Positions 1 to 40,705 of a stretch of 64,000 nucleotides of DNA are shown piece by piece. A program made the translations under genes and the position numbers. Within the stretch, counting starts at the first letter, position 1. Each line of letters opens with the position of its first letter. Source of the stretch: Actinomycetota bacterium (lineage in GTDB: Bacteria; Actinomycetota; Geothermincolia; Geothermincolales; RBG-13-55-18); contig JAQVFR010000008.1 of the NCBI GenBank assembly GCA_028697145.1, forward strand, positions 1-64,000, given 5' to 3'. Under the pieces are notes generated by a model. That model saw only the letters and a program-made list of their open reading frames with translations, did no database searches and was not told the DNA's origin.

Positions 1-32
1 GCCAGGTCGATACCGATGTACACTCTACTCAT
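1..32 (-). CDS. IS110-family transposase, N-terminal fragment (runs off window)
   Basis: Only the first 10 complete codons are in the window, read leftward from an ATG at 32: MSRVYIGIDL, followed by a partial Ala codon. The GIDL(A) segment matches the first catalytic Asp strand (GIDxAK) that opens the RuvC-like DEDD domain of IS110-family transposases. A good ribosome binding site (AAAGGAGG) lies 6 bases upstream of the ATG. The rest of the gene is outside the window, so the family call rests on a short but characteristic N-terminus. Confidence 0.6.
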   Translation of the reverse strand, partial: MSRVYIGIDL

Positions 33-34
33 GG

Positions 35-90
35 GACGCCTCCTTTCAATTAGGCACCAGAAATGACCCACCTAATTGTTCGGAGGCGTT
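35..90 (-). promoter_or_regulatory. Two-helix hairpin upstream of the IS110 transposase, sequestering its ribosome binding site
   Basis: Bases 35-43 (GACGCCTCC) pair with 82-90 (GGAGGCGTT, one G-U pair). After symmetric 4-nt internal loops (TTTC and GTTC), bases 48-54 (AATTAGG) pair with 71-77 (CCTAATT), leaving a 16-nt apical loop. In the transposase mRNA the 3' arm carries the AGGAGG ribosome binding site, so the fold would block initiation. IS110 elements are known to encode a structured bridge RNA in a non-coding end. This hairpin could be part of one, but only about 73 nt separate the ATG from the adjoining repeat, so translational control is equally likely. Confidence 0.55.
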
Positions 91-105
91 CGGTCTTTAT
101 CATTC

Positions 106-166
106 CAGGTCTTGTTTTTTGCATACCGCGGGGAACAAGGGGGTCAGCCCTTAACATTCATCATTT
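106..166 (+). repeat. Partial GGGGTCAG-family repeats next to the IS110 end
   Basis: Bases 106-131 repeat exactly at 243-268 (starts CAGGTCTTGTTTTTTGCATA). Bases 140-166 (starts GGGGTCAGCCCTTAACATTC) are identical over 27 nt to the left terminus of the element at 7894 and to the inverted right terminus at 8069-8095. The first copy lacks its GGGGT start, as if the IS110-like element had inserted there or replaced it at about position 105. No coding potential is seen. Confidence 0.75.
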
Positions 167-204
167 CATTAGCGTTGCTGACTAAGTTGCAGGGCGAATA
201 AACC

Positions 205-228
205 GGAGCCGGGATCCTTCCCGGCTCC
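205..228. terminator. Strong hairpin, possible terminator
   Basis: A perfect 10-bp stem (GGAGCCGGGA at 205-214 with TCCCGGCTCC at 219-228) closes a 4-nt loop. The following bases are only TTCCG, so an intrinsic terminator is possible but not clear. It lies between two GGGGTCAG-type repeats, not directly after a visible gene. Confidence 0.4.
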
Positions 229-237
229 TTCCGATGT

Positions 238-790
238 GGGGTCAGGTCTTGTTTTTTGCATACCGCGGTATGTTGCCTGTTGGCAGCAGGGGTTTTATCG
301 CGTTCGTGCAAAACGTGACCCCCATGGCTTGTGTCCTAGGTGGTTCATGTTCTTCCCGGCGTTGCCCTGGGAGGGAAGGTGGTCTCAAACGATGGGGGTA
401 GCTATGTATCGATACCCTTGTCTGAGGTAATGGCGACTGTTGTCAGGTCTTGTCATTTCACGCCTCCGGCTCCGCCTGCGGCGCAAAACGCAAGACCAGA
501 CCCCACCCTGCGGGGAAAAGAACGAGCCGGGGCGGGCAGACGGATGGGCGATTGAGCGAACGCCGGGTGCTCAGACCGGCAGGTTATGTATCGTTACGCC
601 GGGCCTGAGGTAATGGAGGTTGGGGCCAGGATAAATCCTTTCCCGCAGCGCTTCGCGTCGCTGGCCTTGGGGGTGGGCAAGGCTCGGTCTTGTCATTCCT
701 CGCCTGCGGCTCGGACGCAAAACCGAGCCCGTGTGGCGGGTTGGGGAGAGGACGAAGTGGGCAGACCGGCGGGTTGGTGAGAGAGCGGGG
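238..790 (+). repeat. Long mosaic repeat, copy A (second copy at 60470-60830)
   Basis: This non-coding stretch is built from nested palindromes. Block 238-322 begins GGGGTCA and ends TGACCCC. Block 442-504 begins GTCAGGTCTTG and ends CAAGACCAGACCCC. Block 681-729 is closed by GGCTCGGT and ACCGAGCC. Bases 238-440 and about 600-780 are closely similar, in the same order and orientation, to 60470-60660 and 60640-60830; copy A carries about 160 extra bases between them. The short open frames here have no protein-like composition and are not called as genes. Confidence 0.8.
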
Positions 791-40579: not shown

Positions 40580-40705
40580 GGGGTCAGGTTTTGAAATCTC
40601 GACATACCCGAGTATGATAAGCGCGATCATAACCCCTATTAACAGGACGGATATACTCTGCTTTTGTAAAGATACTTCGGTATGCAAAAAACAAGACCTG
40701 ACCCC
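40580..40705. mobile_element. 126-bp palindrome-ended element between cimA and the FAH gene
   Basis: Ends GGGGTCAGG (40580-40588) and CCTGACCCC (40697-40705) are inverted; the next bases also pair in part (GTTTTG / CAAGAC). The right end abuts the cimA TAA, and the left end stops about 14 bases before the FAH start, so the element fits exactly between the genes. It contains the TTGTTTTTTGCATACC segment also found at 110, 247 and 60475, so it belongs to the same family. Confidence 0.75.

What the first reader, a model, noticed from the sequence alone, without database searches (positions are those of the whole stretch)
1..131. IS110-like element end placed in a repeat, with an RBS-sequestering two-helix hairpin
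The transposase start is preceded by a hairpin whose 3' arm contains its AGGAGG. The hairpin has symmetric internal loops like bridge-RNA stem-loops, and the adjacent repeat copy (106-131) lacks its GGGGT end, consistent with insertion there. IS110 elements often target palindromic repeats.
Basis: partly seen in the sequence, partly recalled or inferred. Interest (0 to 1): 0.5.

Follow-up and report, generated by a model that had tools for sequence, protein, structure and literature searches.

The report
RNA-guided jumping gene in a repeat
The first 107 bases are the end of a bacterial jumping gene whose guide RNA, seen in sister copies, matches the repeat it sits in; a hairpin there probably keeps its enzyme switched off, and sequence at the element's other end could open it.

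Summary
Window 1-107 is the left end of an IS110-family element; the contig ends ten full codons into its transposase. It is not the bridge RNA. Relatives and two right ends elsewhere in this genome carry a 344-424 nt downstream non-coding region with target and donor loops. In this genome the target loop reads CAAGACCTG and CTTGGGGTCA, matching the left flank here and the right flanks there: the motif CAAGACC|TG|ACCCC, found 65 times in the genome and flanking one of its three RAYT genes. Insertion into a REP-like repeat is thus supported, with an IS1111-like layout.

New: the hairpin's 5' arm has a second complement near the right end, kept by compensating changes in all 11 two-ended elements examined and better than the RBS arm. 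In the excised circle these arms, the subterminal repeats and a terminator-like stem are contiguous and can fold as a three-way junction; predicted RBS opening rises in 7 of 10 elements, or 4 of 10 with longer upstream sequence. That switch is inferred. ISPpu9, another REP-inserted IS110 element, already has an RBS-occluding leader.

The parts
1..32 (-). 5' end of an IS110-family transposase gene (ATG at 32-30; ten complete codons, then the contig ends)
   Evidence: same N-terminus as L062/L063 proteins that hit PF01548 and PF02371
36..43 (-). 3' arm of the hairpin, holding the RBS (AGGAGG at 44-39)
47..78 (-). inner helix (47-54 with 71-78) and apical loop
78..89 (-). 5' arm C' of the hairpin; complementary to the RBS arm and, over 12 nt, to GTTCGGAGGCGT near the right end of the element (G000:C3)
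92..99 (-). left subterminal inverted repeat TAAAGACC, partner of GGTCTTTA at the right end
99..107 (-). TGGAATGAT, left end of the element; its reverse complement ATCATTCCA is in the donor loop of the downstream RNA
106..107 (-). core dinucleotide TG shared by target and both ends
   Evidence: inferred from flank comparison
108..131 (-). left half of the target: interrupted REP-like repeat ending in CAAGACC
238..268 (+). uninterrupted copy of the repeat, with GGGGT

Best explanation
Window 1-107 is the left end of an RNA-guided IS110-family insertion sequence with an IS1111-like layout (short left end, long downstream non-coding region). Its transposase and the bridge RNA from the downstream region would recombine the circular element at TG into the motif CAAGACC|TG|ACCCC at the edge of REP-like repeats that belong to a RAYT. 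The hairpin at 36-89 is the leader of the transposase mRNA: it pairs the RBS and keeps translation low, notably for transcripts entering from host DNA. Shown: sequence, homology, guide/flank matches, covariation of the arms. Inferred: RNA expression, recombination, translational repression.
For: Left end shared with relatives up to TGGAATGAT in different flanks. PF01548 and PF02371 in both intact relatives scanned; D, E, D, D columns invariant in 8 aligned proteins. Downstream RNA of G000:C3 carries CTTGGGGTCA (10 nt complementary to its right flank TGACCCCAAG, also the flank of G000:C37) and CCAAGACCTGG (left flank in the window), plus guides for both element ends. Guides follow flanks in other copies: own right flank sole best in 8 of 14 comparisons, own left flank sole best in 6 of 10; e.g. 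11 nt in a Bacteroidetes copy, 10 nt in G001, 9 nt in G025 and G022. Core RNA alignable in 13 sequences with 28 invariant columns. Motif CAAGACCTGACCCC: 65 in this genome, reversed control 0; it flanks RAYT genes in L116, L117, L119 and, as a variant, L118, i.e. 4 of 9 RAYT loci. Hairpin: leader RBS unpaired probability 0.00-0.31 in ten elements; arm pairing 133 of 160 cells in 20 elements.
Against: The window copy itself has no right end: left flank and RNA come from different contigs (C26; C3, C37), so guide and left flank are matched across copies. G005, G774 and G002b fit another element's right flank as well or better. RNAalifold on the RNA core gives almost no consensus (-1.08 kcal/mol, 7 pairs); the loop anatomy is read by eye. 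L110 has no RNA core that I could recognise and was left out. In G000, G005 (intact), G001 and G002b the residue at the catalytic serine is threonine, so activity is uncertain. Rfam has no match in three loci. The RBS-arm pairing is weak in G774, G001, L110 and absent in G400.
Confidence: 0.85

Rival explanations
1. Circle-sensing switch: in the excised circle the right-end copy C lies just upstream of C'. RNA crossing the junction pairs C with C' as it is made, so the later RBS arm stays free; in the integrated element C is absent upstream and the RBS is locked.
For: C/C' paired in 85 of 88 cells against 72.2 on permutation, 0 of 20000 as good; thinned to 8 elements 63 of 64, 1 of 20000. C-stem-sTIR|sTIR-C' run contiguous with gaps of 0-3 nt by eye. 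RBS opening rises by at least 0.1 in 7 of 10 elements when the RNA starts at C, and scrambling C matched it in at most 3 of 40 for those 7.
Against: With 150 nt upstream only 4 of 10 rise (that script lacked one core base in four elements). L107, L108, L110 do not open. The stem before the right end looks like a terminator, and a promoter at the junction would start transcripts downstream of C. G400 keeps C/C' without an RBS arm.
Confidence: 0.25
2. End-to-end pairing: C, at the 3' end of the element transcript or of the bridge RNA, pairs with the 5' end of the transposase mRNA, freeing the RBS or protecting the RNA.
For: C pairs better with the left end than with any other part of the right region in 11 of 11. 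A 14-nt C in trans raises RBS opening by at least 0.1 in 8 of 10.
Against: With C through the 3' end only 5 of 10 rise by 0.1 or more, in the cis model 3 of 10; copies from other elements open some leaders as well as the cognate one.
Confidence: 0.3
3. DNA-level inverted repeat: C/C' is an extension of the subterminal inverted repeats, bound by the transposase.
For: Lies beside the subterminal repeats; kept in G400 which has no RBS arm.
Against: Very unequal distance from the two ends (11-17 against 59-82 nt); two G-U pairs; shares its sequence with the RBS arm.
Confidence: 0.2
4. The 5' hairpin is itself the bridge RNA or part of it.
For: Hairpin with symmetric internal loops.
Against: Left end only 63-89 nt in nine elements; all four guides lie in the downstream region.
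Confidence: 0.03

Closest known systems
IS1111-type elements with seekRNA (PMC11187229, passages seen)
   Same: DEDD transposase, long non-coding region downstream of tnp, subterminal inverted repeats, guides for both flanks
   Different: RBS arm, its 5' arm and a third copy before the right end; transposases not placed on the published tree here
IS621 bridge RNA system (PMC11208160 and PMC11208158, passages seen)
   Same: target loop then donor loop, guides on both sides of each loop, core dinucleotide
   Different: RNA downstream rather than upstream; core TG in the actinobacterial copies
ISPpu9 of Pseudomonas putida (PMC8450116, abstract and passages seen)
   Same: IS110 element in REP sequences; mRNA leader structure occludes the RBS and pairing RNA opens it
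   Different: ISPpu9 has a 244-nt leader and an antisense RNA as opener; here a short leader and a same-strand copy at the right end
REP/REPIN with RAYT (PMC3116915, PMC2817692, listings only)
   Same: motif in inverted pairs around RAYT genes
   Different: here it serves as target of the element

Membership tests
IS110 family | DEDD_Tnp_IS110 and Transposase_20 domains | tested here: met
   two intact relatives; the window holds only the first codons
IS110 family | catalytic D, E, D, D | tested here: met
   D9, E55/E56, D93, D96 invariant in 8
IS110 family | conserved serine in the Tnp domain | tested here: inconclusive
   Ser in G002a, G025, G022, L109, G400; Thr in G005, G001, G002b and G000:C3
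IS1111 group | longer non-coding region downstream of tnp | tested here: met
   344-424 nt downstream, 63-89 nt upstream
IS1111 group | subterminal inverted repeats of 7-17 bp | tested here: met
   best runs 6-15 nt, some with mismatches; G005 only 6
IS1111 group | transposase related to IS1111 over its full length | not tested
   no tree with IS1111 members was built
bridge RNA / seekRNA | loops complementary to both target flanks and both donor ends | tested here: met
   statistics for target guides only
bridge RNA / seekRNA | RNA made and bound by the transposase | not testable with these tools
   needs RNA-seq and binding
IS110 family | circular intermediate | not testable with these tools
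   -
REP/RAYT | motif flanks a RAYT gene in inverted orientation | tested here: met
   L116 in this genome; 1 of its 3 RAYT loci

The most novel reading that the evidence does not exclude
The element carries a circle-sensing RNA switch: one 5' arm chooses between the RBS arm and a copy placed before the right end, and a three-way junction of that copy, a terminator-like stem and the subterminal repeats forms only in RNA that crosses the joined ends, so the transposase is translated from the circle and not from integrated copies.
Probability: 0.25. Interest if true: 0.8.

Novelty: new variant of a known kind. Interest (0 to 1): 0.52.

Why it matters
How bridge-RNA elements restrain their recombinase is little known; ISPpu9 is the one worked example I found. 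A three-way choice of pairing that links transposase translation to the right end, where the bridge RNA is made, or to the joined circle would be a simple self-contained control. The set also gives natural re-targeting examples: guides and flanks changing together in related copies, with REP/RAYT repeats as the niche.

Tried and rejected
Hairpin as bridge RNA: rejected (guides are downstream). Third copy as chance: rejected for the group; in single elements 0, 0, 0, 0, 1, 2, 4, 16, 17, 19 and 30 of 500 shuffles reached the observed score, the last being L107, whose best match is not the homologous one. Third copy as part of the downstream RNA's own fold: no better partner there in 11 of 11.

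Is it general for IS110? 13 other elements on plasmids, chosen from the listings: RBS hairpin reached by at most 7 of 300 shuffles in 3 of 13 (L216, L220, L225), third copy in 3 of 13 (L216, L217, L224), both in one (L216). Same RBS-hairpin test in the group here: at most 8 of 300 in 7 of 11.

Searches with no yield: genome contigs with one protein, viral contigs, Rfam, the right half of the G023 element. Relatives are rare: 6 of 396 genomes of the phylum, 3 of 387, 1 of 395.

Known faults: one search used a wrong left tag for L110, replaced; one search left out one core base in four elements, repeated with it; columns were off by one and its structure string was not used; core dinucleotides of L108, L110 and G774 are uncertain by 1-2 nt. 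Arm registers were set by hand, and related elements make the permutation optimistic. G023 was registered poorly there (3 of 8).

Full report
What the window holds. The window begins at a contig end (G000:C26). Its minus strand reads ...CAAGACC TG GAATGATAAAGACCGAACGCCTCCGAACAATTAGG...AAAGGAGGCGTCCC ATG AGT AGA GTG TAC ATC GGT ATC GAC CTG.

Relatives. A search of 59 genomes with bases 1-131 found matches in 8, one of them (G004) only through the repeat. The conserved part starts at TGGAATGAT while flanks differ. Intact relatives encode 351- and 346-aa proteins with both IS110 domains. Relatives at lower identity were found in MAGs labelled Kiritimatiellae, Victivallis, Neomarinimicrobiota, Desulfobacula and Bacteroidetes and in G774, from the phylum of the Kiritimatiellae record.

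The other end. In this genome two contigs (C3, C37) end at the same base inside the transposase gene and continue into the right end. C37 has lost sequence between the gene and the donor loop. The C3 copy shows a 408-nt downstream region. In it stand CTTGGGGTCA, complementary to the right flank TGACCCCAAG, and CCAAGACCTGG, the left flank in this window; then ATCATTCCA, complement of the left end, and TAAAGGTGA, the right end. Across copies the guides follow the flanks: own right flank sole best in 8 of 14 and own left flank in 6 of 10. Failures are told: G005, G002a, G774, G002b on the right (G000 and C37 tie because they share guide and flank), G005, G002a, G025, G001 on the left, mostly where elements share a target. 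The RNA core aligns in 13 sequences, but RNAalifold finds hardly a consensus; I read stems by eye, for instance GCCGGG/CCCGGC, GCAGGG/CCCTGC and GCCAGA/TCTGGC around the target loop.

The target. CAAGACCTGACCCC occurs 65 times in this genome and 99 times in G023, reversed control 0 in both. It stands in inverted pairs around one of three RAYT genes of this genome and RAYT genes of G012 and G023, with a variant in G002; 5 of 9 RAYT loci lack it. Four contig starts of G023 hold a related element end beside CAAGACC; its right half was not found.

The leader. Across 20 elements the 5' arm pairs with the RBS arm in 133 of 160 cells, with changed pairs such as GGACGACC/GGTCGTCC and GGGTATCC/GGATACCC. 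In the 10 two-ended elements with an RBS arm, 68 of 80, against 62.0 on permutation, 83 of 20000 as good. A leader that occludes the RBS is published for ISPpu9 (PMC8450116, abstract and passages seen).

The third copy. In 10 of 11 two-ended elements the best complement between left end and right region is the 5' arm, 11-17 nt from the left end, and a stretch ending 59-82 nt before the right end; in L107 a homologous GTCGTCC is there but is outscored. Pairing is 85 of 88 cells, 0 of 20000 permutations as good. The copy is followed at once by a stem whose second strand holds TTGACT in most elements and then by the right subterminal repeat; the left subterminal repeat is followed by the 5' arm. 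In the circle these are contiguous.

What it may do. Folded from C across the junction, 6 of 10 elements have the C/C' three-way junction as minimum energy structure, and RBS opening rises by 0.12 to 0.40 in 7. With 150 nt upstream, 4 of 10 rise. In trans a 14-nt C raises it in 8 of 10, C through the 3' end in 5 of 10, the cis model in 3 of 10. G400, without RBS arm, keeps C/C', so the pairing may have another role. I therefore hold RBS occlusion as likely and the switch as an open, testable idea. The TTGACT and AATGAT pair as junction promoter is inferred; no promoter scan was run on the joined ends.

Print. Searches of the held library listed no paper that, by title, abstract or the passages I read, describes the third copy; most subscription papers and preprints are not held.

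Noticed in passing
L062, L102, L106, L085 (G000:C3): The residue aligned with the catalytic serine of IS110 recombinases is threonine in four actinobacterial copies, one with an intact 351-aa frame.
   Followed up: partly
window 40580-40705: Inverted pair of the target motif (one copy with a mismatch), a REPIN-like unit without the element.
   Followed up: no
L086 (G000:C37), L102 (G002:C60): Copies with internal deletions that keep the right end: C37 joins the gene to the donor loop, L102 lacks the stretch with the third copy.
   Followed up: no
window 132-400: Two dispersed repeats abut the insertion: 238-399 in about 30 further places and 132-184 in a handful of others of the genome.
   Followed up: no
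L009 (G000:C2:48370-49380): A second, distant IS110-family transposase of 338 aa in the same genome.
   Followed up: no
L153 (G403:C240), L161 (G399:C147): Other IS110 genes also show complementary arms around the RBS by eye.
   Followed up: partly
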